DNA of 64,000 nt from Cymodocea nodosa (lineage: Eukaryota; Streptophyta; Magnoliopsida; Alismatales; Cymodoceaceae): the NCBI GenBank assembly GCA_036874045.1, contig CM072343.1, forward strand, positions 5,104,001-5,168,000. Direction: 5' to 3'. Shown piece by piece: positions 2,956 through 55,263 of this stretch. The position numbers and the translations under genes were made by a program. How positions within the stretch are numbered: the first letter of the stretch is position 1; the number at the start of each line of letters is the position of its first letter. Below the pieces are notes generated by a model. The model did no database searches and was not told the origin of the DNA. It was given only the letters and a program-made list of their open reading frames with translations.

Positions 2956-2959
2956 AAAT

Positions 2960-18124: not shown

Positions 18125-19264
18125 TTAAGAACATGATTGAAAAGTAGTAACAAATGGAATAAACATGTTAGTCCAAGCAAACTTTTTAGGTATAATTCTT
18201 CTTGCTATTAATTCTATTTTAATACAGTCCGTTTTCCTTTTTAACTTGTAAACTTGCAGTATGTTGTCAATACTAAATATAAGTATATTTCCATTAATGA
18301 ATTGAAATGCAGAAAGGGATCCTTTTCTATTCCAAGATAATGTAGATGTTTCTATTTCTACATATATTTCAATATATTCTTCTTCCCACTTCCATTCATT
18401 TAGGTCTTTTATAATCCATATTTGAAATTTCCTTAATTCATCCCATCATCTTATCAAACATAAAGTAGGATCATCATATTCATTATACCACATTCCTAAT
18501 TAAATTTTATCATATTCTGAAGATGGTGGTTTAGCTATATCACTCGGTATAAGTAATATTTCTATAAAGTCATCATCAAAACTATCTATGCTTACTATGT
18601 ATAAATCAGATCTAAATGCAACTGATATATCTGACACTAAATATATATATCCATCTAGTATGACATGTATGTCGTTAATTAATGCTTTCTATCCTCGATA
18701 TATCATAGTATTTTCAGTCCAAGATTTATTTAGAAAATTATAAACACTTAAGCATAAATCTTCATCCCAATTTCCAGTTGGTCTCCAATAATACAATTTT
18801 TCAAGAATGGTCAAATTTTTATCAGAAAATGTTAAAGCTGACCCACAATTTTTAGTTGGTACTTCAAATCTATTAGGCATTCCTATATTCCATTCTTCTC
18901 TAGTGATAGGATTTCTAATCAAAATATCAGGTAACAGAATTGCATACCTTGGTTTGGTTCTATAAATAATTAATCATTCGTCTATCCCCATAATATGATC
19001 TATTCATTCTAATGTATTGAGTAGAATTCCAACAGTTTCTTCAATATTCAGATATTCATAGTTGATTGAACTACGATTAAATGACTTCCATAAAAATCCA
19101 TCTCTAATCTTAGTCATTTTTGCAGCTTGTAGTCCATGAAAATATTTTTCTCTAATACAATCTTTAATTTCTTTTGATACACAACACAATCTGCATAGAT
19201 CTTTAGCTAATAGGTTACTTAGTACTTCCCTAAGTGCATCTAGTGATAATTTCGTTAATTCCAT
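18125..19264 (-). pseudogene. F-box/F-box-associated protein gene captured in gypsy element (copy 1)
   Basis: About 380 codons on minus. Residues 6-40 read LSLDALREVLSNLLAKDLCRLCCVSKEIKDCI, a clear F-box (compare LPxDLLxxILxRLPxKDLxRLxxVSK). F-box proteins bind SKP1 and choose targets for SCF ubiquitin ligases. The C-terminal part fits an F-box-associated domain: NPITREEWNIG (compare NPxTRExxxLP), GYIYLVSD, LYIVSIDSFDD and FQIWIIKD (compare EIWVMKD). The start is the ATG at 19264, after a pyrimidine-rich run ending CACAACAG. A TAACTCAAC/GTTGAGTTA cluster (19330-19400) sits just upstream. It has a handful of breaks. The domain order is that of a host gene, not of Athila env. Confidence 0.88.
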
Positions 19265-19485
19265 CTGTTGTGATTCTATATAACATAAACAAAAATTTAA
19301 CAGAGATAAAATTAACATAGCTACTTACATACCCTCGTGAAGTTAGGTCATAACTCAACAGATTAAGTTCGTTGAGTTAAGTAATAACTCTATGATATTA
19401 CTAACTATAATTAAACTTACATTTTCTTTCTTTTTATATTTTTCTATATTACTATATTATACATAGTTACTTTAGTTATACTACT

Positions 19486-20678
19486 TCATTCAACTTCCCT
19501 CCCATAGGAGGTATCAATTTCATTAACAGTTCTATTGATAGGGTTAGGTACTGCTTGCATTGGCAATCCTCTAGTAGGTCTAACTTCTATTGATTCCTTC
19601 TATCTAGGGGGTATATTTCTATTCATATTTTGATTTTGAATGGCAGCATTTTCAAATACAAGATCTAGACGATTGTTTAATTGTTGAATTATCTTTTCTA
19701 TCTTCTCTATTCTAGATCCTTGTTCAATTAATGCTTCATAACTTATATTTTTTTTATTTATATTTTCTCCTCCTTGGAAATTATTATTTCTCCAAGATAG
19801 ATTCGGGTGATTTCTCCAATTAGGGTTATAAGAATTTCCAAAGTTATCTTTCTCGTTTCTAACATAAATAATATCTAAATCATTAATGTTTGCATTCTTT
19901 TCTGCTAGTTTTTGATTTAATGATAACTCTTCTATTTTATTTGTTAATTTAGTTAATTTAACTTTGAGCATAGTACTTGAATCTATTTCATGCATTCCCC
20001 TTGGCAATATTCTTTTATCTATAATAACTTCAGCCAAGTTTTCCCACTGTGCAGTTTTTTTTGCAAAGTTTTCTAAATATGCCCATGCTTCCTCACTACA
20101 CAATTTGAAAAATCCAATCTGACAAGTAGATTCTAATAAAGATTTAGTTGAAACATCTATGCCTTCATAAATTATACCTATTAATTGTACTTTACTCATT
20201 GCATGATGTGGACATTGAGTTAGTAAATCTTTAAATCTTTCAAAATATTTCCAAAATGATTCTCCCTATTTTTGGCTACACATTAATATTTCCTTTTTCT
20301 TTTTAATCATTTGATGTGTTGGATAATATTTTTCCAAAAAAACAGAGCAAAATTCAGTCCATGTAGAAATTGAATCAGGCGATAGAGTATATAACCATCT
20401 ATTAGCTATGTCTTTTAAGGAAAAATGGATATATCTAAGTTTAATGGTATCAATACTCATGTTCGGCATTTTCATCATTTGACAAAGTTCATTAAATTCT
20501 CTAAGGAAATAATAGGCATCTTCTCTTTCTAATCCATGAAAGTGTGGCAATTGACTATATAATTAGATTTCAGTTCAAACCTATCTCCCTCAAAGTTTGG
20601 CAATCGAATACATGAAGGTTCATCAACTAATTCAGGATACAGAATTTCCCCTAATGGTTTTTCTACTAGAGCAGCCAT
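19486..20678 (-). pseudogene. Athila-like gag (EF1)
   Basis: Minus-strand gag of about 400 codons. It opens MAALVEKPLGEILYPELVDEPS, matching Athila gag, then FELKS. The retrotransposon gag domain (20266-20550) has PHFHGLEREDAYYFLREFNELC, LRYIHFSLKDIANRWLYTLSP and TWTEFCSVFLEKYYP. Next come a YFERFKDLLTxCPHH block, MSKVQLIGIIYEGID and the Athila/Tat signature NPNWRNHPNLSWRNN near 19800. It ends at 19486, short of the zinc knuckle and protease that usually follow. About three breaks. Start chosen by family match. Confidence 0.88.
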
Positions 20679-20912
20679 ATCTACGTTCTCTTTTAAAGAA
20701 AGGTTAGCTACACCTTTAAGGATTTCGTTAAAGTCTAATTCAAAAAATATTTCAGTACACCTCTATGTTGAATAATCCTGTGTAAGTGTTCTTACTAATC
20801 ATTTAGTGCTAAGAGAACGAATCCATGTGCTTAGAAACTTTTAACATAAAGTAAAATAGTAGAAGATTAATTACATACCAGTCTGATGCTTTGTTTTCTG
20901 TAAATAGTTGTT

Positions 20913-22270: not shown

Positions 22271-22755
22271 TTGTTGACGAATGAAGTTGAATCAGCTGCT
22301 TCTCCTTCCAATTCCCCAACGAATTTTCTTTTCTCTCCTCAAGTGTTGGTAACTCGTAAATAACATTCTGTTCTATATTTGTAATGCGCGTCTATAAGGC
22401 AAATGAATCTCGTTGTAAGAACGTGTCTTGTAATGTGCAATATGGTTCCTATTTTTATGGATATGTGTTTCACTTCTAATTTCAAATTTCAGTGACCGCT
22501 AAACCCATGAAGTTTCGTTCGTGGCTAAAAGAATAACCGTTCAGCTTAATCCACGAACTAAACTCGTTGAGTTATAGTTAACTCAATGGACTAGCTTCAT
22601 CGCCTATTTGCTAACTTCACAAAATAACTTCGTTGAGTTATAGATAACTTAACGGAGTGACCTTATATTTTATTATTGACCTCATGGAGTTAAGGTTAAC
22701 TCAACAGATTTACTTTGTTGAGTTAACACTTAGCAAATTTTTCTAAAACTTACTC
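22271..22755. other. EF1 leader and unassigned LTR-like sequence with GTTGAGTTA cluster
   Basis: No coding frame. 22300-22335 on minus contains CGTTGGGGAATTGG, reminiscent of the Athila/Tat PBS region ending GTTGCCGGGGAATTGG. 22540-22740 holds at least four TAACTC/GAGTTA palindromes such as TCGTTGAGTTATAGTTAACT. A purine tract on minus (CTCCCCG on plus, near 22753) could be the PPT of the next element. A short LTR may occupy roughly 22340-22750, but its ends could not be fixed. Confidence 0.4.
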
Positions 22756-25440
22756 CCCGTATTAACTTCTATATTTTTTTTCTCTCTACATTTTGTCAAC
22801 TTAAATAAAGTTAAAGACATGTCATTAATGCAGTTTCTAATTTAACTCACTTAAATTTGAACATTGTATGCATATTTAACTTACAATTCATTTCCTATTG
22901 TGTAGAATTTACATTTTACTTTTCTACATGCAGATATATTCAGGCATTAACCAATTATCATGCATTTAACCATGTCATTCATAAAATTTGTAAATCTTTT
23001 AAACAGTCTTGCACATCTTTAAATAGTTATATAATATTCAATACAGTTCTCAATTATATCATTCATTCTCAAACACAAATTCCAAAACATTTGAAATTCA
23101 AACATTCATTTATATGAATAGTTACATTTACATATAGTCAGATATATATATATATTTTTTTCAATACAAATATAAGTAGACGAACAATATAATTAGTCAT
23201 TTTTCCTAAGTTCATCTACTTCCTTCTAGAGCTTTTCTAGTTGTTGTTCTGATTGATTTATCCTCTCAACAGCCCCTGTAATGCCTCTAGATGGTTCAAT
23301 AATCTCAGTAGCAGCATAATTTCTGTATTCTTTCATTGAAATGGTTCTTGATCTTATCCTTTTGAATGCCCATTTCATGAAATCGATACTATCCACCATC
23401 AGTAGTGGAATCAGATCTTCATAAAATAATTTCTTCTTTACTACTCTGAGTTTAAAGATAAATACTTTGTACCAATTAACTTGAATTTTGTTCACAACTA
23501 CATATGTGGCCCACTTGACAAATTGACTAAGTGCAATGTCATGGCCTTGTCTTTAATAAACAGTTTTTACTAGTATGGTTGCAACCATGTGTGCCTTTCC
23601 ATTTAAGTACTTCAGTCTGTTTAGTAATGGCACACTAGGGTCGATGGCTATGCACTATTTAATTTCCTGTTCAACCCATTCCACTACAGTTGTTTCTTCC
23701 AAAATTTCAATTCCTTCATTTCTAAAATATTGTGGAGAAGCTCTAGTGTTATCTGTACATCAGCTTGCTCTACGTTGGAAATTAATCCACTTTCTCCTTC
23801 TCTCAAATTGGCATAAAAGTAGGGCACTAGATTTTCGTATACTACATGCCCTCTCTATTGAGAAATAAATTGCAATAGACCCTATAACTCAAATAAGTCC
23901 TTAATTTCTTTCATACCGTCCTAGTTTACTGGCCTACTATAAATAATATCATATCCCTTCATCTCTTGATATTTATTATAAGCTTCCTAACTCCAAAAGT
24001 GTACTTCATTTAGAATGGTAGCTTCAATCGGGTCAGGAATTTGAATTTGTTGCTCTAAAGGGATTTATTCTTGAACTTCTTCTACATTGTGTTGAACTTG
24101 AATTTGCTGGAAATGCTTAGAAGATTCTTGCATTTTTGCTTCTGCTTCTGTTTGTGGTGGAGAGCCAGCAGAACTCTCCACTCTTCTTTCTTGAATTCTC
24201 TCTAAAATTTGTTGAAGAGTCTCTCCCTCTTCAATGGAATCTGTCGAGTCATTTTTTTCTTGATCAATATGTACTTGTTCAGCTTCTTGTTCAGTTTCTA
24301 CTCTTTCTTCTTCCTCTTGACTATCAATCTACATTGTCACTATTCTTTCTGATTCTATGGTAGATTGGGATGGAGTCACGAGAAAATCAGCTTCTGCCTT
24401 AATTTTAGTTTCTTCTCTTTGTAGAGGTTGTAGACTAGTTTTAGCTTGTTTTTCTTCTTCTCTTTGCTCATGTTGCTGCTGCTCTTACTCATCCTCAGAT
24501 TTGGATAGTAGGTCTACAAAAATGGGCTCTACAAACCCTTCTGATATTTTCAGCTCAGTTTTAATCTCTATAGGAGCTTCAGGCACTATCTCTTTTCCTT
24601 TCCTTCTTCTAATTAGTTGTGCTTGGTCTTCCTCTTCCTCTTTTGAGATTAAATCTACAAAAATGGGCTCTGTATGCCCTCAAGCCACAAGTACTTGCTT
24701 TTCCTATTTTACTTTTTCAATACTTACTGGTCTCGAAGGACCAATTCCATTTCTTTTGCAACCATTGATCTAGCTACTTCCTGATGCTGCTCTACTTTAA
24801 TTTTGTATTGGACCTTCAACTTATCTGTAGCCCTTTTCTTGCAGAGTGCATCATATAGCAAATGCGATTTTGCCACAGCCATATCCTTAGAATTTCCTTG
24901 GCTCTTGGAAACTTTGACAAGCTCTGCAAATTCTTTCCATTCCTCTAGCGTCGATGGCCCCAAAAATGCAGCTCTTTCTATCAGCCTTGGTAGTGGAATG
25001 GATGATTCTGGCTGCTGTTCCTTAGTAACTAGTCTTTCAGTTGCCGGCTCTGCAGCTGTAGGTTCTTAGCTGCTTTCCTTTGTTGCTCCTACATTGCCCA
25101 CTAAGCATGTCCACCAATATGTCGTACAAATCATAATTTGGACTTGTGCTAGATCAATTCTAGGGCAACTTCGTTGTTTGGCCTGATTCTTCTCTCTATT
25201 TATTGCAACTTCTGTTGCTACTTTTATCCTCATTTCCACAATCTGAGGTATGGTAATATCTAAATCTACTAAGACTTTCCTCTAGTAGAAAATGTTAGAT
25301 TCTACCTTTTGAAGTTCTTTTCCCTTGTCGTGTTCTTGATCATTTGTCTCGTATGCCATTCTTCTGATTCTTTGAGAAATCTCGTGGTGTCTATTTCCTC
25401 CTAGAACTCTAGTGTCATCTTGTCTTCGTAGTGTGACGGA
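22756..25440 (-). pseudogene. ORF-P copy 1: plant-transposon/env-like protein remnant
   Basis: Broken minus-strand frame family. The N-terminal half (25440-24700) is charged and helical, with LYDALCKKRATDKLKVQYK. The middle (24700-24130) is acidic and repeats a unit built on EPIFVD followed by acidic residues and an RRRKGKE-like basic patch. The C-terminal part (23560-23195) has NKIQVNWYKVFIFKL and KKLFYEDLIPLL, then a leucine-rich helix. The C-terminal block resembles ORF-Q (58097-58498), NKIQINWFDVFISQL, so the two are distant relatives. It may be the putative plant transposon protein family or the env-like third frame of Sireviruses; I cannot decide. Many breaks. 22756-23190 is non-coding. 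Confidence 0.6.
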
Positions 25441-27445: not shown

Positions 27446-29424
27446 TGTTTGGGTTAGCTTTAGGCGGCACTAGAGAACTTGTTTAGTTCACAGGTAACAT
27501 AGTTAGAAAACTTGCATTTGTTAACTTCTGTTTTTACTTGGTTAATTTATCCTTGTGCTTATATCAATAATTTTTTTTAGAAGTAAACAAATAACCTTTC
27601 ACATAAATTAGATATTAATTCCAATTTGTATTTTAACTACAAGTGCACAGTGTATATTGTATTTGTGTGCAAGTACAGGTCGATCCTATAGAGAATTGAT
27701 TGAGAATTGTGTACTGTTCCATTTTTTATTATACTTAATGTGTTTAGTAATCACTCCGTTGAGTCACAGTTAACACAACAGACTAATCTCGTGGACTTAA
27801 GTTAACTCCACGAGTCTATCTTTCCAGTTTAATACTACTATTTACAAAGGAATTCGGCCAACCATTGGGCGGTTCCATAGATTGTAAATAACATCAATTA
27901 AGCTCTTTAATGTTAGTGAACATTAGATTTATCATTAAGCCATACTAACATTCAGATATTTCAAACAGTAACCATTAAAATCTTTAAGTATTTTGAACGA
28001 ATCAATTTCAATAAACTGTAAAACTATTATCTATTTTCTGAATCAAACAAACATAAAACATTCACAATACTAACAATGATAACTTTAATCATGATACAAA
28101 ACAAACAATACAACACTTAAATACGAAATACAAACACAGATAAGTTGTTGTTTTCGGTATTTTTGTTTTGAGATGTTTATGAAAATGGGCAAAAGGTGAA
28201 ATGTAAAAATTCTCTATCGATAGTAAATACTTCCATCACTACATGTTACGCCATTACACCATTGAAAACTTAATCACTTACAATTCTGCCTCCTCTCCCT
28301 ATAGAATTGCGAGTCCAGAATTGCAAGATGATCTCCTCTTCAGCATACTGGCATCAACCCGAAACCAAGGCTAGAAGGTTTACAATCTCTTGAGATATGA
28401 GTCGGTGCTTGGTGAAAATGGCTTCCCTTCCCGCAACGCGATCACTCCTCATAGTGGTTGTCAGGCACCGTGTTTGGCTCGGAATCGACCCGACATCAAG
28501 AAAGTATCCTCACAGACCTCCGATGGTTGGTGTGGAACTTTCGACGTTGCCTGTAGATAGCTCGGTTTGTCCTCCTCCACACACACACCCTTCTTCGTCT
28601 TTTCTCCTTTTCTTGTATATTTCTTTAGTGGTAACTGCTTCTACTTAGTTGATCGGTTGGATTTCTTTCATTCATATCAACGATGGTGATTTCTTCTCCC
28701 TTCCACAAGTGAATTCCTATGTGATACGTGCAATTGTGGTTTTCCTTCGAATGTCCTATTCTTGTAACCACTACAGTGGCATATTAGAAAATAAATGGTC
28801 CGTGGAGTTACAGATAACTCAACGGACTTACTTCGTTGATTTAACTATAAAACATGTGCACTAAAGAAATAAGATGCTAACATAACGCATTACCTTAGTG
28901 TGTATTCATGTAACTCAACGCGTACAGTTATGCTAACTTAACGAGTTAAACATGTGCATCTCACGTAATATACTAAAGCATTTAAATTCAACATATGCAT
29001 AATTCTAACTTAATGATTACAAATATTTCGAATACTTAAAAACCTAACTATCTGATGCCCAGATGCATTTCAGATAGTTAATAGATAATTTACCGAAAAT
29101 CCACTTAAGTCATGCTTTTGGTTTCGACACGTGTACTTCAAGAAATAATAAAATATTCTTTAAAACATAATTGTCCGGTACATTACACATAACTCCAAAA
29201 TAATAGAAAATTCAGATACTTAAGAATTTCACAGCTTGCAATTTCTCGACAGTTCAGAAATGTACTAAATTAACATTAATTCCTTGAAATTATGCAGATT
29301 CTTTCATTAAAGCATATAATAGTGCAATTATAACATAATGGCTTAATTCTCATATGATAAGCTAAATATTATGCAATTAACCATTATTTAACCATTAATA
29401 TTATGCACTTTTTCATTCTAAACA
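27446..29424 (-). repeat. 3' LTR of EF2 (G family)
   Basis: Full-length G LTR, 1979 bp. On minus, U3 (29424 to about 28620) holds the module shared with S-family copia LTRs (28868-28975) and TTTCGGA/ACTTAAGT/CACGTG pieces. The TATA is near 28615-28621. The leader is a GC-richer block (28290-28560). U5 includes GTACAGGTCGATCCTATAG near 27673 and another TAACTC cluster at 27755-27830. Confidence 0.9.
28290..28560. other. GC-richer block in G LTR with conserved short frame
   Basis: In the G LTRs a GC-richer block just downstream of the TATA holds a frame on the strand opposite to the element: MSRCLVKMASLPATRSLL and VWLGIDPTSRKYPHRPP (28397-28648 plus). Equivalent frames start at 35557, 39287, 41170 (minus), 47650 and near 49060. 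The frame is antisense to gag, so it may be an accident of a conserved leader. I do not claim a product. Confidence 0.45.
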
Positions 29425-31192
29425 CTTCCCCCATACTTAAATTTTGCTAGTCTCTTAGCAAACTAAGACCTAATTAATTGGTCTTTCTAAAGTGCTAGAA
29501 TTAATTCTTCCTTTTGTTCTTCTTTTTAGCATAAGAACTTATATTATTATATAGATATTCTGTATGTTTCAGTAATCTGTTTTAACATTGTTTTCTCCTC
29601 TTCAACCTGCAAATATACTTAGAATATATGTAAATTACATACAAAATATATCAGCATCACATAGGTGTCAATTATATTATCATTTGTTCTTTTTTTCATC
29701 ATCTGTCATCCTAAATTTTCCAATAAGATTTCCAAAATAAATTTCAACAACATAGGAATCAAAACACAATCCAATTCAATATGATTAAGACAAGTAGAAT
29801 AAAGAATTGTATCTCAAATAAACAACTTCAAAAGTCTATTCTAGATTCATATTTTAGCAATTTTAGATAACAGAAAATATACTCGATTTAAAAGATATCT
29901 GTATTTCACAAAACACTTGTATCTTTTTAGAACAGTATATGTATATTTGTACTTTAAAAGTTAATTTGACAAGCTTGAATCATACAAGAGCTTTCTAGTG
30001 TACCCATGTATCGAGGTTTCAATCAATAATCCCAGATCTGATCAGGATCTTAGGTTGCCAGATTTAAAGAGTCCTATTTTAGGTCAACAATCCTTACATA
30101 CCTATCTGCTCAAGTACAAAAGGCTCGTGATTAAACAAGTCAATAAACTCTCAAAGTTTTTTTTTTTTTTTTTTTTCTTTTCAACACAGTATATGTACAT
30201 ATTTCACTAATACAGATGCAATAAAACACCAATCTCATATAGTCCTACTTCTATTATTTACTAAAAATATGAATTCATATCAATAAGCTCATACTTTTTT
30301 CTGTAGTTTAATAATATCTACACATAAATCATTCTACAAGTTTAATCAGTAAAATTAAATGTATCTTTGATCATATGTGTTTCATTTAATCTAAAAATCA
30401 ACATTTCAGCTCTTTCAGGACTTCAGATAATTTACTAAGTTTCAGTTAAGCATTCTGATTTCATTTTAAAATCGTGAAATTGTTAAACTCATAAAATTCA
30501 ACAACATAAGATATTATATCTAGATTTGCATAAATAGTAAATTCTATAGCATTCTAAATATAACATTCAAGTAGTTACAGTTCTTAAAAAAAATTTACAG
30601 TCTCAATTATTGGATAGTTACAGCAAATTCATAAAAATTTTCAATTTCCACAAAACTTGGCAGTACCATTCTAATTCCTTTAATTAACAAACTTTCATGG
30701 CTGTTACTTTAATTACCTCCCCCCCATACCTATTTTTTTACATTGTCCTCAATGTAAAAGATTTGACAATAAATACAATAATTGTAGTAGGCATGAATAT
30801 TGTTTCGTTGACTTAGCATCTAACTCAACAAACTTAATTCATTGAGTTAATGAATAACTCGACAAATTGAGTTTAAATCTAAATTCAGGATAAGTAATCA
30901 ATTACATACCTTGTTTCGTTTATATCTCCTTCTGTATATTCTGATTTTTGATTTTGAAAAACTTTTCATTCACAGATAAAAGCAGAATATATAACAAAAT
31001 AACATTTAACAGATATTGATAAATCAATGTCTTGTGTGGAACCCAGGCTCCTATGCCTTTGGTGGCTCACAAGCAATCTAGTTGGTTTCCCAAAATAGAT
31101 ACCAACAAACTAGATTGATATTTTGTTTGTTTTTTTTTTTTTCTAAAAATAAATGCAAAATACACACAACATTAAAAGCACGGAATTATAAT
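29425..31192 (-). other. 3' non-coding region of EF2 with two hairpin/PPT modules
   Basis: Same plan as EF1. PPT CTTCCCCCATACTTAA (29424-29440) with hairpin TTGCTAGTCTCTTAGCAA (29444-29461), and a second module with CCTCCCCCCATACC (30717-30730) and hairpin TTTTACATTGTCCTCAATG (from about 30735). The 1.3 kb between them is conserved with EF1 and EF3. A TAACTC/GAGTTA cluster lies at 30810-30870. No coding frame. Confidence 0.75.
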
Positions 31193-32329
31193 TTAAGAAC
31201 ATGATTGAAAAGTAGTAACAAATGGAATAAACGTGTCAGTCCAAGCAAACTTTTTAGGCATAATTCTTCTTGCTATTAATTTTGTTTTAATGCAGTTTGT
31301 GTTCCTTCTTAATTTGTAAACTTGTAGTATGTTATCAATACTAAATACAAGTGTATTACCATTAATGAAATGAAATGCAGAAAGGGATCCTTTTCGGTTC
31401 CAGGATAATGTAGCAGTTTCTATTTCTACATCTATTTCAATATATTCCTCTTTCCACTTCCATTCATTTATGTCTTTCATAATCCATATTTGAAATTTCA
31501 TCAATTCATCCCACCATCTTATCAGACATAAAGTAGGATCATCATATTCATTATACCACATCCCTATTTGAATTTTATCAAATTCTGCATATGGTGGTTT
31601 AGCTATTTTTCTCGGTATAGGCAAAATTTCTATATATTCATCATAACTATCTATGCTTACTATGTATAAATCAGATCTAAATGCAACTGATATATCTGTG
31701 ACTAGATATATATATCCATTAAGTATGACATGCATGCTGTTAATTAATGATTTCTGTCCTAGATATATCATAATGTTTTCAGTTCAAGATCTATTTAGAA
31801 AGTTATACACACTCAATCATAAATCTTCATCCCAATTTCCTATAGGTCTCCAATAATACAATTTTTCAGGAATGGTCAAATTTTTATCAGAAAATATTAA
31901 AGCTAACCCACAATTTTAAGTTGGTACTTCATATCTATTAGGCCTTCCTATATTCCATTCTTCTCTTGTGAGAGGATTTCTAATCAAAATATCAGGTAAC
32001 AGAATTGCATACCTTGGTTTGGTTCTATATATAATTAATCCTTCATCCATCCCCATAATATGATTTATTCCTTCTAATGTATTGGGTGGAATTCCAGCAG
32101 TTTCTTCCATATTCAGATATTCATAGCTAATTGAACTACGATTAAATGACTTCCATAAAAATCCATCTCTAATCTTAGTCATTTTTGCAACTTGTAGTCC
32201 ATGAAAATATTTTTCTCTAACACAATCTTTAATATCCTTTGATACACAACACAATCTACACAGATCTTTAGCTGACAAGTTACTCAACACTTCCCTTAGT
32301 GCATCCAGCGGTAATTTTATAAATTACAT
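31193..32329 (-). pseudogene. F-box/F-box-associated gene captured in gypsy element (copy 2)
   Basis: This copy has the longest open stretches. 31916-32290 holds the F-box end (LSAKDLCRLCCVSKDIKDCV), KMTKIRDGFLWKSFN, PPNTLEGINHIMGMDEGL and NPLTREEWNIGRPNR. 31193-31771 holds the associated domain: GYIYLVTDISVAFRSDLYI, GMWYNEYDDPTLCLIRWWD, FQIWIMKDINEWKWKEEY and the conserved end FIPFVTTFQSCS. F-box proteins are SCF ubiquitin-ligase receptors; whether this copy was ever active is unknown. The gene is in sense with gag. It has about two or three breaks. Identical layout in EF1 and EF3 shows capture preceded spread. Confidence 0.88.
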
Positions 32330-32536
32330 CTGTTGATTCTATATAACATAAACAAAAATTTAGTAGAGACAAAAATTAACATAACTACTTCACACCCTTG
32401 TGGAGTTAGGTCATAACTTAATGGATTAAGTTCATTGAGTTAAGTAATAACTCTACGATACTATTAACTATAAGTAAACTTACATATATTTTTTTTTTCT
32501 TACCATATTATACATAGTTACTTCAGTTATATTGCT

Positions 32537-33285
32537 TCATTCAACTACCCTCCTAGAGGAGGTATCAATTTCATTAATAGTTCTATTGATAGGGTTAGGT
32601 ATTGCTTGTATTAACAATCCTCTAGTAGGTCTAACTTCCATTGATTGCTTTTGTCTAAGTGGTATGTTTCTATTTTGATTTTGAATTGTAGCATTTCCAA
32701 ATACAAGATCCAGACGATTGTTTAATTGTTGGATTATCTTTTCTAATTTCTCTATTCTAGATCCTTGTTCAATTAATGCTTCATAACTTATATTCTTGTC
32801 ATTTATATTTTCTCCTCCCTCAAAATTGTTGTTTCTCCAAGATAAATTCGGGTGATTTCTCCAATTAGGGTTATAAGAATTCCCAAAGTTATCTTTTTGG
32901 TTTCTAGCATAAATAATATCTAGACCATTAATGTTTGCATTCTTTTCTGCTAGTTTTTGATTTAATGATAACTCTTCTATTTTCTTTGTTAATTCAGTTA
33001 ATTTCACTTCAAGCAAAGTGCTTGAATCTATTTCATACATTCCCCTTGCCAATATTCTTTTATCTATAATGGCTTCAGCCGAGTTTCCCATTGTGTAGTT
33101 CTTTTTGTAAAGTTTTCTAAATATGCCCATGCTTCTTCGCTACACAGTTTTAAAAATCCATTCTGACAAGTAGATTCTAATAAAGATTTCGTTGAAACAT
33201 CTATTCCTTCATAAATTATACCTATTAATTGTGCTTTACTCATTACATGATGTGGACATTAAGTTAGTAAATCTTTAAATCTTTC
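32537..33285 (-). pseudogene. gag remnant of EF2
   Basis: Minus-strand Athila-like gag part. It begins inside the KDLLTxCPHH block and MSKAQLIG, passes KKIEELSLNQKLAEKNANING and NFGNSYNPNWRNHPNLSWRN, and ends with RPTRGLLIQAIPNPINRTIN, as in EF1. The N-terminal gag domain found in EF1 is absent. At its upstream border it meets a protease-like remnant rather than more gag. About two breaks. Confidence 0.85.
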
Positions 33286-33289
33286 AAAA

Positions 33290-34480
33290 TATCACTTGGC
33301 ATAACATTTATACCTGCACCTAAGTCTATTAAGGTTCTTTCTAGAATGGTATTTCCTATGGTGCATGATATAATAGGGATTCCAGGATCAGATAACTTTT
33401 TAGGAATTCGTGGCAGAAATAGGGAACTACTTTGCTCAGCTAAAAAGACCTTCCTAAGAACTTTTCACTCTCGTTTCTTAGTACACCAATCCTTTAGAAA
33501 TTTAGCACAAGGTGGCATTTTATATAATAGATCTAACGAATGAATGTTAACTTGTACTCTTTCAAAAATTTCTCTAATTTTTTCTTATTTTTCAGGTATT
33601 GTTTGTTGTAATCTTTCTGGATAAGGTACTAATGATTGTGTTTAAAAGATTCTTTTTCTTTCATTTGATTTGTTTGATCATTTTTAGTCTCATTAGTAGA
33701 TTCAGATTGTTCTTCATTGATTTCTATATTTTTGGATATTACATTCTCATTGATTTTTGCTCTTATCCACCTTCATATTATTTTCATTTTGAATTCTTGG
33801 TGGTATATTAGTTCTAGATCTTAGTGTTATACATACATCTTCCAGATTTTTGTTACTCTCATGATGTTCTTGTATATTATTTTCGTGATTATGATCTTCA
33901 ATTGTTTTTAGTTTTAAAGTGCATTCTTTAAATTCTCTTGCATTAGTATTTTCTTTTGTCTGTATATCTTGCAAATTATGCAGATCTATAACATTATAAT
34001 TTTCATTGTCCTGTTGCATAACTTGTATTTTCATTGTATATTCGTCCAATACTTTTAGTTTTCTTTCCAAATCATCTAATCTCATTGCATTCAATTTTTG
34101 ATCAATTTTCATTATGGTTTTTTCAGTTTCATAAATGATATCCATTTTAGGTTCTAAATATGCTTCCTTATAGTTTAATTGGTTGACTTCTTGTTGCTGA
34201 CGCATAAAGTGTTCCAGTTTGTCCATGTTTTACTCTATACTACACTCCAGTCTGTCATACCTATCCCGAACTTCTGTGTCTCTCAACATATTACACATTC
34301 TATACTGACCATCAGTTGGGTAAACCATAGGATTCTCATACTCGACTCTATTATATTGAAGATAATTCATTTGTTATTCATGCGATCTAAACATCTACAA
34401 ACGTCTCAGTTTCAAACAATCAGAAATGTCGTGACCTTCAGAATTACAGAATTCACATATGCTAACTACAGGTTTTAGAA
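33290..34480 (-). pseudogene. gypsy zinc-knuckle, gag tail and protease remnant in EF2
   Basis: Read on minus from 34480: a zinc-knuckle-like block near 34400-34455 (CEFCNSEGHDISDCLKLRR), a helical region (33747-34226; MDKLEHFMRQQQEVNQLNY), CITLRSRTNIPP (compare the Athila motif before protease), then protease sequence near 33300-33450 with RTLIDLGAGINVMPSD, where DLGA is the aspartic-protease active site. These belong to a more complete gypsy gag-pro than the F-box elements otherwise show, supporting a mosaic origin. Several breaks. Confidence 0.8.
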
Positions 34481-34580: not shown

Positions 34581-34610
34581 CAATTCCCTAGCAATGATGC
34601 TAGAAAAACT
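34581..34610 (-). promoter_or_regulatory. Diverged primer-binding site of EF2
   Basis: Directly after the 5' LTR end the minus strand reads AGTTTTTCTAGCATCATTGC and then TAGGGAATTGAG. Its position and spacing match the Athila/Tat PBS region (TGGCGCCGTTGCCGGGGA type), with clear divergence, mostly transitions. Confidence 0.55.
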
Positions 34611-36624
34611 TGTTTGGGTTAGCTTTATGCAGCACTAGAGAACTTGTTCAGTTCACAGGTAACATCACTAGAAAACTTGTATTTGTTAACTTCTGTTTTT
34701 ACTTGGTTAATTTATCCTTGTGCTTATATCAATAATTTCTTTTTAGAAGTAAAGAAACAACCTTTCACACAAATTAGATATTAATTCCAATTTGTATTTT
34801 AACTATAAGTGCACAGTGTATATTGTATTTGTGTGCAAGTATAGGTCGATTTCATAGAGAATTGATTGAGAATTATGTACTGTTTCATTTTTTATTATAC
34901 TTAATATGTTCAGTAATCACTCCGTTGAGTCACAGTTAACACAACAGACTAATCTCGTGGACTTAATTTAACTCCATGAGCCTATCTTTCTAGTTTAATA
35001 TTGCTATTTACAGAGGAATTCGGCCAACCATTGGGCAGCTCCATAGATTGTAAATAACATCAATTAAGCTCTTTAATGTTTCTAAACATTAGATTTATCA
35101 TTAAGCCATACTAACATTCAGATATTTCAATTAGTAACCATTAAAATCTTTAAGTATTTACGAATCAATTTCAGTAAACTGTAAAACTATTATCTATTTT
35201 CTGAATCAAACAAACATAAAACATTCACAATACTGATAATGATAACTTTAATCACGATACAAAACAAATAATACAACACTTAAATACAAAATACAAACAT
35301 AGATAAGTTATTTTTGGTATTTTTGTTTTGAGATGTTCATGAAAATGGGTGAAAGGTGAAATGTAAAAATTCTCTATCGACAATAAATACTTCCGTCACT
35401 ATATGCTACGCGATTACACCACTGAAAACTTAATCACTTACAATTCTGCCTCCTCTCCCTGTAAAATCATGAGTCTAGAATTGCAAGATGATCTCCTCTT
35501 TAGCATACTGGCATCAACCTGAAACCAAGGCTAGAAGCTTTACGATCTTCTAAGATATGAGTCGGTGCTTGGTGAAAATGGCTTCCCCTCCCACGACGCG
35601 ATCACTCCTCACAATGGTTGTCAGGCATCATGTTTGGCTCAGAATTGACCCGACATCAGGAAAGTATCCTCATAGACCTTCGATAGTTGGTGATTATGGT
35701 GGTGATGGTGATGGTTGGTGTGGAACTTCAAGGAACTTCCGACGCTGCCTATAGATAGCTCGATTTGTCCTCCTCCGCACACACACCCTTCTTCGTCTTT
35801 TCTCCTTTTCTTTTATATTTCTTTAGTGGTAATTGCTTCTGCTTAGATGATTGGTTGGATTTCTTTCATTCATATCAACAATGGTGATTTCTTCTCCCTT
35901 CCACGAGTGAATTCTTGCGTGATACATGCAATCGTGGTTTTCCTTTGAATGTCCTATTTCTGTAACCGCTACAGTGGCATATTAGAAAATAAATGGTCCG
36001 TGGAGTTACAGATAACTCAACAGACTTACTTCATTGATTTAACTATAAAAGACGTGCAATAAAGAAATAAGCCGCTAACATAACGCGTCACCTTAGTGGG
36101 TATTCATGTAACTCAATGCGTATAGTTATGCTAACTTAACGAGTTAAACGTGTGCATCTCACGTAATATACTAAAGCATTTAAATTCAACACATGCATAA
36201 TTCTAACTTAACGATTACAAATATTTCGGATACTTAAAAACCTAACTATCCGGTGCCCAGATGCATTTTGGAAAGTTAACAGATAACTTACTGAAAATCC
36301 ACTTAAGTCATGCTTATGGTTTCGACACGTGTACTTCAAGAAATAATAAAATATTCTTTAAAACATAACTGTTCGGTACATTACAAATAACTCTCCGAAA
36401 TAATAAAAAATTTGGATACTTAAGAATTTCACAGCTTGCAATTTATCGACATTTCAGAAATGTTCTAAATTAACATTAATTCCTTGAAATTATGCAGATT
36501 CTTTCGTTAAAGCATATAACAGTGCAATTATAACATAATGGCTTAATTCTCATATGATAAGCTAAATATTATGCAATTAACTATCATTTAACCGTTAATA
36601 TTATGTACTTTTTCATTCTAAACA
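34611..36624 (-). repeat. 5' LTR of EF2 (G family)
   Basis: Full-length G LTR, 2014 bp, paired with 27446-29424. TATA on minus near 35811-35819 (AAATATAAAAG). U3 shared module at 36060-36165. It ends CATTCTAAACA and abuts the RNase H region of the older gypsy. Confidence 0.9.
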
Positions 36625-48492: not shown

Positions 48493-51400
48493 TTAAATAC
48501 TACTATTCACAAAGGAATTCGGCCATCTATTGGGTGGTTCCACAGAATGTAAATAACATCAATTAAGCTTTTTAATATTAGTTAATCTAAGATTTGTCAT
48601 TAAGCAACACTAACATTCAAATTTTTCGAATAGTAACCATTAGGATTTTTAAGTATCCTCTACGAATCAATTTCAATAAACAATAAAACTATTTTCTATT
48701 TTCTGAATCAAACATAAAACATTCACACTACTAACAATGATAACATTAATCACGATTTAAAACAAACAATACAACATTTTAATTCTGAATGTAAACATAG
48801 ATAATTAGTTGTTTTTGGTATTTTTTTGTTTTGATATGTTCCTGAAGATGAACGAAAGGTGAAATGTAAAAATCTCTATCGACAGTAAAAACTTTCTTCA
48901 CTACATGTAACACGATTACACCACTAAAAACTTAATCACTTACAATTTTACCTCCTCTCCCTATAGAATCGTGAACCAAGACTTGTAAGTTGATCTACTC
49001 TTTAGTATACTAGTATCAACTCGAAACCAAGGCTAGAAGCTTTACAATCTCCTAAGATATGAGTCGGTGCTTGGTGAAAATGGCTTCCCTTCCTATGACG
49101 TGATCACTCCTCACAATGGTTATTAGTCACCGTGTTTGGCTTAGAATTGACTCGGCATCCAGAAAGTATCCTCACAAACCTCCGTTGGTTGGTGATTTTG
49201 GTGGTGTTGTGGAGCTTCAGGGAACTTTTGATGCTTCCTGTAGTTAGCACGGTCCTCCACTTCATCCACTTCTTCGTCTTTCTCCTCTTCTTTTATATTT
49301 CTTTTAGTAGTAACTACTTCTACTTAAATGATTGGTTGGATTTCCTTCATTCATATTAACAATGGTGATTTCTTCTTCATTCCACGAGTTAATTCCTATG
49401 TGATACATGCAATCGTGGTTTTCCTTCGAATTTACTATTTCTGCAACTACTATAGTGGCATGTTAGAAAATAAATAGTCTGTGGAGTTAGTGTAACTCAA
49501 CGGACTTACTTTGTTGACTTAACTATAAAATACATGTAATAAAGAAATAACTTAACGAGTTCAAATGTTTCAGATAGTTACAACTATAAGAATCTGTAAC
49601 GCTTTTATGTGTTGTTAAATTAACAGCAAAAGTGCAAATTTTACATTTATAACTGCAAGCACACGATGCCCATTGTAATAAGCATGTGCAAGTACGGGTC
49701 AAATCCATAAGGAGTTTGTCTTAAATAAATTTTATTAAAATGATTATCTGATTAAATATCCACATTGAACTAACTCATAATTAAACTCTAATTACTTAAT
49801 ATTAATATACAAAATTCGTAGCACAATTAAAGTTTATAAGATTACCCCAAAATCCAATTAATTCTTAAGTTATGATAAGATATTTAAGAAATCAATGAGT
49901 ACTAATCTAGATATCATAGAATTTATGCTTGACATTTAACTCCAATAACTTCCAACTTGAACGTTTAAAAATCCAGAATAAATAACGGTTGGAAAGATCC
50001 TCGGAATATCTTTAAAATGGCAATAATTTCGTGGATTAACTCAAATTAAAATGCTGGAAATATCTTATTAAAGAAAGGGGCATAGACGGTTATGGAAACT
50101 TTCCAAAAACTCACCTTTGGTGCAAAAATCAAATCTTCGTCAAATCTTCATGAAATGCTATGAAATAAGTGCACCTTGAAAGTAGATCCATTACACTAAC
50201 AAGGAATATTTACAAAACTGAATTCCACAAAATACACGATGCAAGCACAGCACAGGTGTCGAACTCAAAATTAGCACTCGATAGAGACTCAAAACCGCTG
50301 ATACCTTTACAAAATAAAATCAATAATCTTCTAAAAACATTCTAAAAAATTCTAAAACTTTGTAAACTTGTTCTACACTCATTATACTTACAAAATGAAA
50401 CAAAAAACGGAATTTAGAGATGATGAACAAGTGGATACAATTCGAAGAAAAACTACTAACAATCTAGCCATCTAAGAACGAAAAACTGCCTTCACAATTT
50501 ACACCATCACAATCATTCACACGATACATATAATATGAACTCAATCCTGATATCAATTAACATCAAAACAATATATGATCTTTAATTTAGAACATTTGAA
50601 ACAAAGATTTATGCATAGAATTTCGTTCTTCCACATACTCATACTATACTCATACATATGGAATTGTAAAACATGAAAACTAGTATGAGGATCTCTCCTT
50701 TCCATCATACCTTTTAATCTTCCACGTTTCTTTAAGCAATGACTCCCCAAAGTCCTTGAAATCGATGCTCCACATGGCTGTCACCACCTGTAGCATGTCC
50801 AAGTAAAGCTTCTAGGGTTGCCTTGAAGAAGAATGGTGCACGTCTTCAAGATCTTGCCTCCAAGACCCACAACTTTGGCTTCCACATCTAAGAATGGTGC
50901 TTCTGATGACTCAACTCTGAAGATCCTAACCTTTTGCTCCACTCCAAATCAGTCACACGAGCCTCCCATCCACCAAAATCAACGCCCAAGGAGATCCTAA
51001 CGTATGACCGTCTGAATTGAAGAGAAGGTGTCTTCTAGGAAGAGGGGAAGACGCCAAGGCTCACCATTCTTGAGGGGAGCTTGTTCAAGATCAAGGGGAA
51101 GATGGGACTTTCCGGATGGAGATGTTGGAATGGCTGGAACCGCTAGCTGTAATGTGTTGGAAGAGGAGGAGATAGTCTAGGATTGAGTGGTCAAACACTT
51201 TAAATAGTCTAGGCTTTTGTAGCTTGATCTCTAATAAGTTGCTTCCAATGGCCTACATTTTTTCCTCTTTAATCCATCTTGAATTCATGATTTAGTGACC
51301 TATAAAACTCAAAACCAAGTTGGATGCACATATACATTGAATATAAATCATATGATGTAAATATAGTATATATGCATGCATGAGTTACCATATATGGAAA

Positions 51401-52275
51401 GTTGCCAAATTAGGAAGGTTTTGGTCCACAACTTTTTCACATGTGCATACATGAATTACTTAAAGTTCTTTAGTTTAACATCATATTTAAGTGATTTGGC
51501 AATTATACAATGTATATAAAGTCATACATTGAAGAATTATAAGAATTATGTCTAATACAGGGTTATTGACTAGGTGTTTAATTGATAAAGGATAAATTTG
51601 TGCATTATTGACTATTTAACCAATAAAACATGCATAGTTCTAAAATATGATTTTCATGTAATCTTTCATAAGAACATATATAATGATGACTTATATTCGT
51701 TAATATGCATGAATTAACATATATAAAATGCATAAATTGATACTTTACAATATCCAAAACTTATATGCATTTCGGATAGTTAGCACCTAACCTTTTGAAA
51801 GATAACTTAAATCAAGTTTCTAGATCGCGACACATGTTCTCAATTAGTTTTATGATAAAAAGGTATTTTGGATACTTGCAAACCTAACTATCCGATGCTT
51901 AGATGCATTTTGGATAGTTAGCATCTAGCTTATCGAAAATCTACTTAAGTTATGTATTAAGGTTACAACACGTGTCCTTTAGGAATTAATAAAGTATTCT
52001 TTAAGCGTTTAAAACATAACTATCTGGTACATGAAATGTAACTCTTTGAAATAACAAAAAATTTGAAAACTTAGGAATTAAAAAGCTTGTAACTCACCGA
52101 TAGTGCAAAAATGTACTTAATTAACATTAATTCCCTGAAATTATGTAGATTCTTTCATTAAAGCATAAAAGAGTGCAATTATAACATAATGACTTAATTC
52201 TCATATGATAAGCTAAATATTATGTAATTAACCATTATTTAACTGTTAATATTATGCACTTTTTCATTCTAAACA
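48493..52275 (-). mobile_element. G-family LTR, left end missing, split by solo LTR X; 3' LTR of EF3
   Basis: Parts at 48493-49594 and 51750-52275. The first begins inside the LTR (TTAAATACTACTATTCAC), so about 380 bp are absent. The second continues with ATGCATTTCGGATAGTTAGC and ends CATTCTAAACA. PPT sequence at 52276 shows it is the 3' LTR of the F-box element EF3. Direct tandem placement with the G LTR at 46698 suggests unequal exchange between LTRs. Confidence 0.78.
49595..51749. mobile_element. Probable solo LTR of a further gypsy family (X)
   Basis: 2155 bp starting TGTAACGC and ending TACTTTACA, sharing terminal TGTAA/TTACA inverted repeats. It interrupts a G LTR that reads continuously on both sides. 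Flanks GAATC and ATATC are only partly alike, so the target duplication is uncertain. 49655-49720 has AACTGCAAGCACACGATGCC and GTGCAAGTACGGGTC, close to the block in G LTRs (GTACAGGTCGATCCC). 50700-51200 is GC-richer, exon-like sequence without a long frame. No gag or pol. Confidence 0.65.
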
Positions 52276-54123
52276 CTTCCCCCATACTTAACTTTTGCTA
52301 GTCCCTTAGAAAACTATTAAGATCTAACTAGTTGGTCTTTCTAAAGTGTTAGAACTAATTCTTCATTTTGTATCTTCAGAATTCATAAATTAGATTAATA
52401 TAGAGATATTCTATATTAATTTAGTAATCTAATTTAACATTGTTTTTTCCTCTCCATCTTGCAAATATATTTAAAACATATGTAAATTATATACAACATA
52501 TACTAGCATCACATAGGTGGTAGTTATATTATCAAATTTTTCTTTCCAAACATCTGTTATCCTGAATTTTCTAATATGATTTCCAGAATACATTTCAACT
52601 ACATATGAATCAAAACACAATTCAACTCAATATGATTAAAACAAGAAGAATAATGAATTGTATCTCAAATAAACAACTTCCAAAGTCTAATCTAGATTCA
52701 TACTTTAGTAATCATAGATAACAGAGAACATACTCGATTCAAAAGATATTTGTATTTTCACAAAAGACTTTTATCTTTTTAGAACAGTATATGCATATTT
52801 TTACTTTAAAAGTTAATTTGAAAAGCTTGAATCATACAAGAGCTTTCTAATATACCCATGTATTGAGCTTTTAGTCAACAATCCAAGATCTACTCAGGAT
52901 CTTAGGTTGCTAGATTTAAATAGTCCTTTTTCAGGTCAACAATCCTTACATACCTTTTTACTCAACTACAAAAGGCTCATGATCAAACAAATCAATAAAC
53001 TCTCAAAGTTTTTCTCTCTTTTCTTTCTCTTTTTCCTTTTCAACACAATATGTATACATATTTCATTAATATAGATGCAATAAAACACAAATCTCATATA
53101 ATCCTACATTTATAATTTATTAAAGACATGAATCCATATCAATAAGCTCATACTTTTTCTATAGTTTACTAAGATTTACATGTAAATCATTCTACAAGTT
53201 TAATCAATCAAATTAAATGTATCATTGATCATATGCATCTCATTTAATCCAAAAGTCAACATTTCATCTCTTTCAAGATTTAAGATCATTTCCTGAATTT
53301 CAGTTAAGCATTTTGATTTCTTGTTAAAATTGTGAAACTGTTAAACACATAAAATTCAGTAAAAACATAAGATACTATATCCAGATTTGTATTAATAATA
53401 AAATTTTAAGATTCTAAATATAACATTCAAGCAGTTACAGTGTTTTTTTTTTTTTACAGTTTCAATTATCGGATAGTTATAGGAAATTTCAGTTAATTAT
53501 AGCAAATTCATAAAAAATTTTCAACTTCCACAGAAATTTTGCAGCATAATCCTAATTCCTCTATTTAACAAAATTACTTGGATTTTAATCTAATTACCTC
53601 CCTCCCATACCTACATTTTGCATTGTCCTCAATGTAAAAGATTTTACAATAAATATAGTAAATGTTAGCAAGCATGAATATTATTTCGTTGACTTAACAC
53701 CTAACTCAACAAACTTAATTCATTGAGTTAATGAATAACTCCACGAATTGTTCTTGAATGTAAATTCAGGATAAGTAATCAATTACATACCTTGTTATTT
53801 TGTATCTCCTTCAACATCTTCCGACTTTTGATTCTGAAAAACTTTTCATTCACAAATAAAAGTAGAATATATAACAAAATAACAACTTTACAATTAAACA
53901 TAAATTGTTAAATTAGTGTTTTGTGTGGAACCTAGGCTCTTATGCCTTTGGTGGCTCACAAGTAAGATAGTTGGTTTCTTAGAACAAATACCAACAAACT
54001 AGATTGATATTTTGTTTTTCTTTTCTTTTCTTGTAAGATAAATAAAACAAAAACTAAATTTTTTTTTTCTTTCCTAAAAATAAATGTAGAGTACACACAA
54101 CATTAAAATTACAAAATTACAAT

Positions 54124-55263
54124 TTAAGAACATGATTGAAAAGTAGTGACAAATGGAATAAACATGTTAGTCCAAGCAAAACTTTTAGGCATAATTCTTC
54201 TTACTATTAATTCCATTTTAATGCAGTGTGCTTTCTTTTTTAACTTGTAAACTTGTAGTATGTTATCAATGCTAAATATAAGTGTATTACCATTAATGAA
54301 TTAAAATGCAAAAAGGGATCCTTTTCTGTTCCAATATAATGTAGTTGTTTCTATTGCTACATATATTTTAATATATTCCTCTTCCCACTTCCATTCATTT
54401 TAGTTTTTCATAATCCATATTTGAAATTTCATCAGTTCATCCCACCATCTTACTAAGCATAAAGTAGGATCATCATATTCATTATACCACATTCCTAATT
54501 GAATTTTATCATGTTCTACAGATGGTGGTTCAGCTATATCATTAGGTATAGGTAATATTTCTATAAAGTCATCATCATAACTGTCTATGCTTACTATATA
54601 TAAATCAAATCTAAATACAACTGATATATATGTGACTAGATATATATATCCATCAAGTATGACATGTATATTGTTAACTAATGCTTTCTTTCCTTGACAT
54701 ATCATAGTGCTTTCAGTCCAATATCTATTCAGAAAATTATATACACTTAAACATAGATCGTCATCCCAATTTCCTGTTGATCTCTAGTAATACAATTTTT
54801 TAGGAATGGTTGAATTTTTACTAGAAAATGTTAAAGTTGACCCACATTTCTCAATTGATACTTCAAATCTATTAGGCCTTCCTATATTCCATTCTTCTCT
54901 AGTAATAAGATTTCTAATCAAAATATTGGGTAACAAAATAGCATACCTTGGTTTGGTTCTATAAATAATCAATCCTTCATCTATCCTCATAATATGATCT
55001 ATTCCTTCTAATGTATTGGGTGGAATTTCAACAGTTTCTTCCATATTTAGATATTCATAGTTGATTGAACTATGATTAAATGACTTCCATAAAAATTCAT
55101 CTCTAATATTAGTCATCTTTGCAACTTGTAGTCCATGAAAATATTTTTCTCTGATACATTCTTCAATTTCTTTTGACACACAACATAATCAACATAGATC
55201 TTTAGCTGATAAGTTACTCAATACTTCCCTTAGTGCATCCAACATTAATTTCATCAATTCCAT
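54124..55263 (-). pseudogene. F-box/F-box-associated gene captured in gypsy element (copy 3)
   Basis: Collinear with 18125-19264 and 31193-32329. Minus-strand pieces include SKEIEECIREKYFHGLQVAK, PPNTLEGIDHIMRIDEGLII, PRYAILLPNILIRNLITREE, DGYIYLVTYISVVFRFDLYI, GMWYNEYDDPTLCLVRWWDE and FQIWIMKN. The F-box itself spans the first 40 or so codons. The spacer upstream (55330-55395) again carries GTTCGTTGAGTTAAG and ATGACTCAATGG motifs. About four breaks. Retention of the associated-domain motifs in all three copies supports one captured gene rather than chance similarity. Confidence 0.86.

What the first reader, a model, noticed from the sequence alone, without database searches (positions are those of the whole stretch)
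18125..55263. An F-box gene rides inside a gypsy retrotransposon and has spread as three copies
Seen: three minus-strand loci (18125-19264, 31193-32329, 54124-55263) hold the same F-box plus F-box-associated protein, always in sense, always about 220 bp after an Athila-like gag and always followed by the same 1.8-kb non-coding region and G LTR. EF2 has both LTRs and a near-perfect 5-bp target duplication. Known: F-box proteins are SCF ubiquitin-ligase receptors, and plant LTR elements can capture host genes (maize Bs1 is the classic case). Inference: the gene was captured once, took the place normally held by pol or env, and was mobilised in trans. An element-borne SCF receptor could act on host silencing or on its own gag, but nothing here proves that.
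Basis: partly seen in the sequence, partly recalled or inferred. Interest (0 to 1): 0.88.

Follow-up and report, generated by a model that had tools for sequence, protein, structure and literature searches.

The report
Retrotransposon with F-box, moved capsid gene
A 17-kb plant retrotransposon family carries, behind its polymerase genes, its own capsid gene (normally at the front) plus an F-box gene whose protein sequence was conserved while the family spread, which suggests the element uses the host's protein-destruction machinery.

Summary
The three F-box loci are real: 378-379-codon frames with a clear F-box and a weak F-box-associated match. The F-box belongs to a high-copy Athila-like Ty3/gypsy family (108 scored matches on 20 of 28 contigs of a 375-Mb genome, a lower bound) whose full form has pol. 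A ~17-kb copy on C12, with paired LTRs and a 4-of-5-base target duplication, reads LTR, PBS, zinc knuckle, protease, RT, RNase H, integrase, region X, capsid gag, F-box, 1.8 kb, PPT, LTR. The capsid gene lies after integrase, not before protease. A second family (K, one copy seen) also has its capsid there, without X or F-box. Among the window copies F-box dN/dS is 0.29-0.42, below all 300 divergence-matched neutral runs in each of six sets, but stops are not depleted. Best reading: an SCF ubiquitin-ligase receptor kept by the element, comparable in use to plant-virus F-box proteins. Target, expression and host donor are unknown; genome searches for a donor were unanswered or uninformative. 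My open-access searches found neither feature in print.

The parts
18125..19264 (-). EF1 F-box ORF (379 codons, 5 internal stops)
16289..18124 (-). EF1 non-coding stretch between F-box and 3' LTR
16018..16284 (-). EF1 3' LTR, truncated
   Evidence: matches EF2 LTR 36357-36624
19603..20911 (-). EF1 capsid-type gag, lying after pol and X (bounds approximate)
   Evidence: Pfam match on relative L031
20912..22270 (.). later repeat insertion (about 1.36 kb) between X and gag of EF1
   Evidence: L032 and L033 are contiguous here with a 5-bp overlap
22271..25065 (-). EF1 region X (coiled-coil and Transposase_32-like ORF remnants)
   Evidence: Transposase_32 sub-threshold in relative L038
26165..27298 (-). 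EF1 integrase
   Evidence: rve 51.1 bits, H2C2 47 bits
36625..38134 (-). EF1 RT-RNase H, separated from its integrase by the EF2 insertion (outer bound is where the L036 match ends)
34611..36624 (-). EF2 5' LTR
34586..34602 (-). EF2 primer-binding site, decayed Athila type (type recalled)
   Evidence: less decayed forms in L052-L054
33750..34532 (-). EF2 5' ORF remnant: CX2CX4HX4C knuckle, coiled coil, TLRS motif; no capsid match
33293..33540 (-). EF2 protease remnant ending at the deletion junction (RT, RNase H, IN and X absent)
32540..33292 (-). EF2 gag, N-terminally cut
31193..32329 (-). EF2 F-box ORF (378 codons, 4 internal stops)
29425..31192 (-). EF2 1.8-kb non-coding stretch and polypurine tract
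27446..29424 (-). EF2 3' LTR
54124..55263 (-). EF3 F-box ORF (379 codons, 4 internal stops)
55470..55949 (-). EF3 gag remnant (bounds approximate)
51750..52275 (-). EF3 3' LTR, interrupted at 51749 by a K-type LTR (51749-49598)

Best explanation
The F-box gene is a resident accessory gene of a large (about 17 kb) Athila-like Ty3/gypsy LTR retrotransposon whose gene order is permuted: LTR, PBS, nucleocapsid-like knuckle plus protease, RT, RNase H, integrase, then region X, a separate capsid gag gene, the F-box gene, a non-coding stretch, PPT and LTR. Shown: this order in several copies, one bounded by an LTR pair; the F-box domain; amino-acid constraint on the F-box among the window copies; and a second family with its capsid in the same place. 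Inferred: the capsid and F-box ORFs, far from the 5' end, are made from spliced subgenomic RNA (an acceptor-like U-rich AG lies 11 nt before the F-box ATG). Inferred: the F-box protein docks on host SKP1-like proteins in an SCF ubiquitin ligase and directs a host restriction or silencing factor, or the element's own capsid, to degradation, helping the element replicate. EF2-like copies lacking pol would then depend on full-length ones.
For: F-box above the Pfam cut-off in 3 of 3. 108 scored matches of 7008 first-look candidates, on 20 of 28 contigs, 8 of 108 without a stop. Order: IN then X at the expected place in 4 of 12 sampled loci, RT then X in 1 of 12; also EF1, L036/L031 and L037/L032. 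LTR, PBS, knuckle-type ORF, PR, RT in 3 of 4 upstream stretches. C12 copy in order from LTR to LTR, flanks ACCCT/ACCCC, LTR K2P 0.076. No capsid match between PBS and PR in L052, L053, L054, EF2 or K's L055. K has IN, gag, 3' LTR. Selection: dN/dS 0.33, 0.29, 0.42 for the three window pairs; neutral runs matched for divergence average 0.84-0.91, and 0 of 300 reach the observed value in each of six sets. F-box pairs have 0-1 gap events in about 1140 sites, the 3' stretch 15-17 in about 1750-1810. ML omega 0.34 on 30 copies (28 of the 30 were picked by protein score). Plant-virus F-box precedents: PMC3588083, passages.
Against: No expression, SKP1-binding or target data. FBA match is sub-threshold. 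Stops are not depleted: 8-9 per pair of window copies against 6.8-8.9 in matched neutral runs; decay after insertion could supply them. One tryptophan column (160) reads as a stop in 14 of 30 distinct copies, 12 of them TAG, and the carriers are no closer to each other than random sets (1256 of 2000 as close): either recurrent change or an old truncated variant that spread. 7 of 12 sampled loci lacked IN and RT at the expected place. L001-L030 were picked by protein score, which favours intact frames. K rests on one copy whose matched 5' LTR lacks the first 250 bp or so.
Confidence: 0.64

Rival explanations
1. Passenger: a captured F-box gene amplified with the element but not used by it.
For: All three window copies carry 4-5 stops, at neutral frequency. 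100 of the 108 listed matches carry stops. A stop at column 160 is found in 14 of 30 distinct copies. Captured genes in rice LTR elements often decay (PMC3726574, passages).
Against: dN/dS 0.29-0.42 in the window copies, below 300 of 300 matched neutral runs in each of six sets. Few gap events in the F-box. Stops lie at different places in the three copies.
Confidence: 0.2
2. One reading: a non-autonomous gag plus F-box element in which the F-box replaced pol, moved by another element's enzymes (TR-GAG-like).
For: EF2 has paired LTRs, a near target duplication, gag and F-box and no pol.
Against: EF2's 5' part holds a knuckle ORF and a protease remnant that ends abruptly in gag, so it derives by deletion. 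Pol-bearing copies recur.
Confidence: 0.06
3. The pol-X-gag-F-box order is a chance product of nested or head-to-tail elements.
For: The region is heavily nested; 7 of 12 sampled loci lack pol at the expected place, and LTRs separate neighbouring F-box units in L034 and L051.
Against: No G LTR match lies between IN and F-box in the pieces of the C12 copy that were read, and the LTR pair and flanks bound the whole. IN ends 5.5-5.7 kb before the F-box on four different contigs. K shows capsid after integrase separately.
Confidence: 0.05
4. The F-box protein is functional but acts inside the element's cycle (for example turnover or timing of its own displaced capsid) rather than against host defence.
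For: The F-box lies directly after the capsid ORF, so the two may be co-expressed.
Confidence: 0.25

Closest known systems
Athila / Calypso / Diaspora lineage of plant Ty3/gypsy elements
   Same: Long LTRs, PBS of the type recalled for Athila, RT-RNase H-IN order, gag with a WRNHPNF motif (motif recalled), an extra region between pol and 3' LTR.
   Different: In the lineage as described, gag, knuckle, protease, RT and integrase form one ORF with gag first (Diaspora, PMC1142308, passages; PMC6317226 gives GAG-PROT-RT-RH-INT, passages). Here the capsid gag lies after integrase and X, and an F-box gene follows it.
Orchid Ty3/gypsy elements with an AlkB m6A demethylase ORF (PMC9289625)
   Same: A large gypsy family that acquired a host-type enzyme ORF and kept it through several rounds of replication (abstract and passages).
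   Different: Different domain (RNA demethylase); no F-box in the text (0 occurrences), and no displaced gag in the passages seen.
Maize Bs1 and other LTR elements with captured gene pieces
   Same: Host-type sequence inside an LTR element, in sense.
   Different: Captures of the transduction type are described as present in one or a few copies (PMC7264820, passages); here the gene is resident in a high-copy, pol-bearing family with a constrained protein.
TR-GAG non-autonomous elements
   Same: EF2 carries LTRs and gag but no pol.
   Different: The family's full form has pol, and it carries an F-box ORF.
Plant-virus F-box proteins (polerovirus P0, nanovirus CLINK; PMC3588083, passages)
   Same: A parasite-encoded F-box proposed to redirect the host SCF machinery.
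   Different: No homology was tested or is claimed; here the gene sits in a retrotransposon of the plant's own genome and the target is unknown.

Membership tests
F-box proteins (PF00646) | F-box domain above curated cut-off | tested here: met
   3 of 3 window copies, 28.4-41.2 bits against 20.5
F-box proteins (PF00646) | Binding to a SKP1-like protein | not testable with these tools
   needs experiment
FBA-type F-box proteins | FBA_1 PF07734 C-terminal domain | tested here: inconclusive
   15.0-18.3 bits against cut-off 21.1, not listed for EF1; structure model of the C-terminal stretch too poor, pLDDT 41.6
LTR retrotransposon, Ty3/gypsy | LTR pair, PBS, PPT, target duplication | tested here: met
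   EF2 and C12 copy; duplications match in 4 of 5 bases in both
LTR retrotransposon, Ty3/gypsy | RT-RNase H upstream of integrase | tested here: met
Athila lineage | gag domain at the front of one gag-pol ORF | tested here: not met
   no capsid match between PBS and PR in 5 of 5 stretches read (L052, L053, L054, EF2, K's L055); capsid found after IN
Athila lineage | Placement by RT phylogeny, absence of an additional RNase H | not tested
   no plant reference set at hand
Athila lineage | Athila ORF-1 / Transposase_32 extra ORF after pol | tested here: inconclusive
   PF20167 24.7 bits against 45 on the X of L038; 27 bits on an X-like ORF of another repeat, window 46201-46671
Athila lineage | PBS for tRNA-Asp | tested here: inconclusive
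   TGGCGCC(A/G)TTGCC-type site after the 5' LTR; match to tRNA-Asp recalled, not computed
TR-GAG non-autonomous elements | gag only, no pol in the family | tested here: not met
   pol-bearing copies
Host gene transduction (Bs1 type) | Identifiable host donor gene | tested here: inconclusive
   PF07734 search of the own genome returned 0 and its 14 controls were silent; the PF00646 searches did not complete

The most novel reading that the evidence does not exclude
A lineage of plant Ty3/gypsy elements has split and permuted its Gag: a knuckle stays fused to Pol at the 5' end, while the capsid is a separate 3' gene expressed from spliced subgenomic RNA. One branch then added a dedicated SCF receptor that degrades a host silencing factor, so a plant retrotransposon family encodes its own ubiquitin-ligase-based counter-defence.
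Probability: 0.28. Interest if true: 0.93.

Novelty: new variant of a known kind. Interest (0 to 1): 0.82.

Why it matters
LTR retrotransposons are described as gag first, pol second. A high-copy family that makes capsid from the far 3' end needs another way to set the Gag-to-Pol ratio, and that is testable by long-read RNA. A resident F-box under amino-acid constraint would be evidence that a plant transposable element uses the host ubiquitin system, and gives a concrete protein with which to look for the host factor it acts on.

Tried and rejected
Rejected: host F-box genes lying next to elements by chance. Of the 30 fetched loci, 29 have at least half of gag upstream or half of the 3' stretch downstream; the thirtieth (L022) has 0.49 of the 3' stretch. 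In the six loci with less than half of gag (L001, L011, L014, L021, L022, L027) a repeat or LTR stands where gag would be; L022's LTR has the same orientation, so it could be a deletion derivative. Rejected: the 'place of pol' model for the family.

Withdrawn on checking: my earlier argument that stops are fewer than neutral. One search's stop counts belonged to a larger divergence than the window pairs have; matched runs show no depletion.

Led nowhere: homologous-protein search with the three copies (none of 3719 candidates at E<=0.01; the collection seems to lack plants); PDB sequence search with EF2's open stretch (6 matches, best E 0.3); structure of that stretch (mean pLDDT 41.6, no fold search made); PF07734 in the own genome (0 matches, controls silent). 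The comparison of private with shared variants is not used as evidence: nonsynonymous/synonymous ratios fall with allele count in most of the non-coding and shifted-frame controls too. Gag counts are not used: several loci have insertions in gag and were forced into the alignment. L005 and L025 were dropped as duplicates before (all pairs), 97, 99 and the column-160 test; itself flags only L004/L005, while L025 was dropped on look. L027 was also dropped.

Papers: search listings and abstract starts, plus matched passages of PMC6317226, PMC9289625, PMC11963269, PMC7264820, PMC3726574, PMC8764390, PMC11728184, PMC1142308, PMC3588083; no whole text was read. That neither feature was found in print rests on searches.
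Full report
Observation. The three minus-strand loci read through in one frame of 378-379 codons. They carry 5, 4 and 4 internal stops at different places, and EF2 lacks one codon in frame. F-box PF00646 passes the cut-off in all three; FBA_1 is a weak match. Protein identity to EF3 is 81% (EF1) and 78% (EF2). EF2's LTRs are 1979 and 2014 bp with K2P 0.076 over 1973 sites, and the flanks read ATTAT and ATTAC. At recalled plant rates of 1.3e-8 to 7e-9 per site per year this is about 2.9 to 5.4 million years.

Copy number. A search of the window's own genome (375 Mb, 28 contigs) with the EF3 protein gave 108 scored matches out of 7008 first-look candidates. All 108 cover nearly the whole protein at 79% identity or more (EF3 itself 100%), on 20 contigs; 8 of 108 have no internal stop. 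EF2 itself is not in that list, so it is a lower bound.

Context. Of the 30 fetched loci (1.5 kb each side, picked by score), gag covers at least half its length in 24 and the 3' stretch in 27. In the six with less gag, a repeat or LTR stands in its place.

Pol is present. Upstream of F-box copies on C16 (L036/L031) and C18 (L037/L032), and upstream of EF1 in the window, integrase is followed by X, gag and F-box on the same strand. L037 also holds other insertions. In EF1, RT-RNase H (to 36625) and IN (from 27298) are parted only by EF2: L036 runs across this point with a 4-bp overlap and no gap. I then sampled twelve further F-box loci by a 2-kb slice 4.7-6.7 kb upstream. In 4 of 12, IN is followed by X, with IN ending 5.5-5.7 kb before the F-box; in 1 of 12, RT is followed by X; in 7 of 12 neither IN nor RT appears (one of these has X and an LTR in inverse orientation). 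Four stretches were fetched further upstream. Three (L052, L053, L054) show G LTR sequence (whole in L052, partial in the other two), PBS, the 5' ORF, protease, RT and RNase H. The CX2CX4HX4C knuckle is seen in L052 and EF2 and has one cysteine changed in L053; L054 matches that ORF at 79% but its knuckle letters were not looked at. The fourth (L051) holds the end of another F-box element.

A copy bounded by LTRs. On C12 the pieces lie in order from a 5' LTR starting at 11484297 through PR, RT, IN, X, gag and F-box to a 3' LTR starting at 11469209, about 17 kb in all. The flanks are ACCCT and ACCCC, and LTR K2P is 0.076 over 1933 sites. This argues against a nested or head-to-tail artefact.

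The capsid gene is displaced. Retrotrans_gag PF03732 is met downstream of X (61.8 bits). tblastn with gag found no capsid between PBS and protease in L052, L053, L054, EF2's 5' part or K's L055; a 60-base gag match in L055 lies before K's LTR. In K, a second family with about 68-72% DNA identity in pol and 49% capsid protein identity, the order is LTR, PBS, knuckle-PR-RT-RNase H-IN, gag with its own knuckle, non-coding stretch, PPT, LTR, with no X or F-box. K was seen once, and the first 250 bp or so of its 5' LTR were not matched. The described order of plant Ty3/gypsy domains is GAG-PROT-RT-RH-INT (PMC6317226, passages), and Diaspora, an Athila relative, has gag, knuckle, protease, RT and integrase in one ORF (PMC1142308, passages). 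PMC6317226 also reports 159 Ty3/gypsy elements in which GAG was not identified, and PMC11963269 seven Retand clusters that encode no GAG domain; such cases might include displaced capsids, which I could not check.

EF2. Its 5' part runs PBS, knuckle ORF, protease, and then jumps within the protease into gag at 33292. RT, RNase H, IN and X are missing. It is therefore a deletion derivative, and only copies of this kind could need help in trans.

Selection. For the three window copies, which were not chosen by score, NG86 dN/dS is 0.33, 0.29 and 0.42. Neutral runs with the non-coding substitution spectrum, matched to each pair's number of differences, average 0.84-0.91; 0 of 300 reach the observed value in each of six sets (unmatched runs average 0.82-0.86). 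Gap events are 0, 1 and 1 in the F-box against 15-17 in the 3' stretch and 4-6 in the end of gag. A codon model on 30 copies, 28 of them picked by score, gives omega 0.34. The tree is star-like, with internal branches 12% of its length. Against: stops are not depleted (8-9 per pair, matched neutral means 6.8-8.9). Column 160 reads as a stop in 14 of 30 distinct copies, without clustering of the carriers. Point differences per site in the F-box (0.094-0.120) are only a little below those of the 3' stretch (0.107-0.143). My reading is constraint while the lineage was moving, then neutral decay after insertion; a long-spread truncated variant is not excluded.

Expression. Eleven nucleotides before the F-box ATG lies a U-rich stretch ending in AG, kept in 24 of 27 aligned copies; a GGTAAGTA motif some 57 nt earlier is in 6 of 27. 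Conservation of this whole stretch is high (mean 0.89), so the site does not stand out and is suggestive only.

Mechanism and rivals. The commitment is to an element-encoded SCF receptor, by analogy with polerovirus P0 and nanovirus CLINK (PMC3588083, passages), which are precedents for use and not relatives. Whether the target is a silencing factor, another host protein or the element's capsid is open.

Limits. The genome-search machine did not answer most requests, so the host donor, total copy number and further K copies could not be examined. The plant is unnamed. Novelty is claimed only against the open-access searches listed.

Noticed in passing
L055:1285-6500 with L036:1-6323 (C16): A second, nearly complete Athila-like family (K) with capsid gag after integrase and no F-box; it sits inside the pol of a G element. 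K-type LTR sequence also at window 49598-51749 inside EF3's LTR.
   Followed up: partly
F-box codon column 160, L001-L030: A tryptophan codon reads as a stop in 14 of 30 distinct copies (12 TAG) and the carriers do not cluster: a mutation hot spot, an old variant, or conceivably a tolerated stop.
   Followed up: partly
L052:2998-3142 (reverse-complement coordinates): Three tandem PBS-like sites after the 5' LTR of the C12 copy, as if the LTR end plus PBS had been duplicated.
   Followed up: no
window 33270-33300: EF2's deletion junction joins protease to gag; template switching is one possible cause.
   Followed up: no
L004 and L005 (C15, 9.63 and 9.91 Mb): Near-identical loci (99.5%), a probable segmental duplication or assembly duplication.
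   Followed up: no
window 46204-46719 and 58100-59677, minus: X-like ORFs in other repeats (Transposase_32 sub-threshold for the first; similarity of the second seen by eye).
   Followed up: no
window 800-3600 and 12808-13770, minus: Copia-type remnants: gag by Pfam (Retrotran_gag_2, 102.6 bits), pol by eye only.
   Followed up: no
L031:6288 onward: An F-box copy without internal stops whose 3' LTR begins only about 250 bp after the ORF, so most of the 1.8-kb stretch is absent.
   Followed up: no
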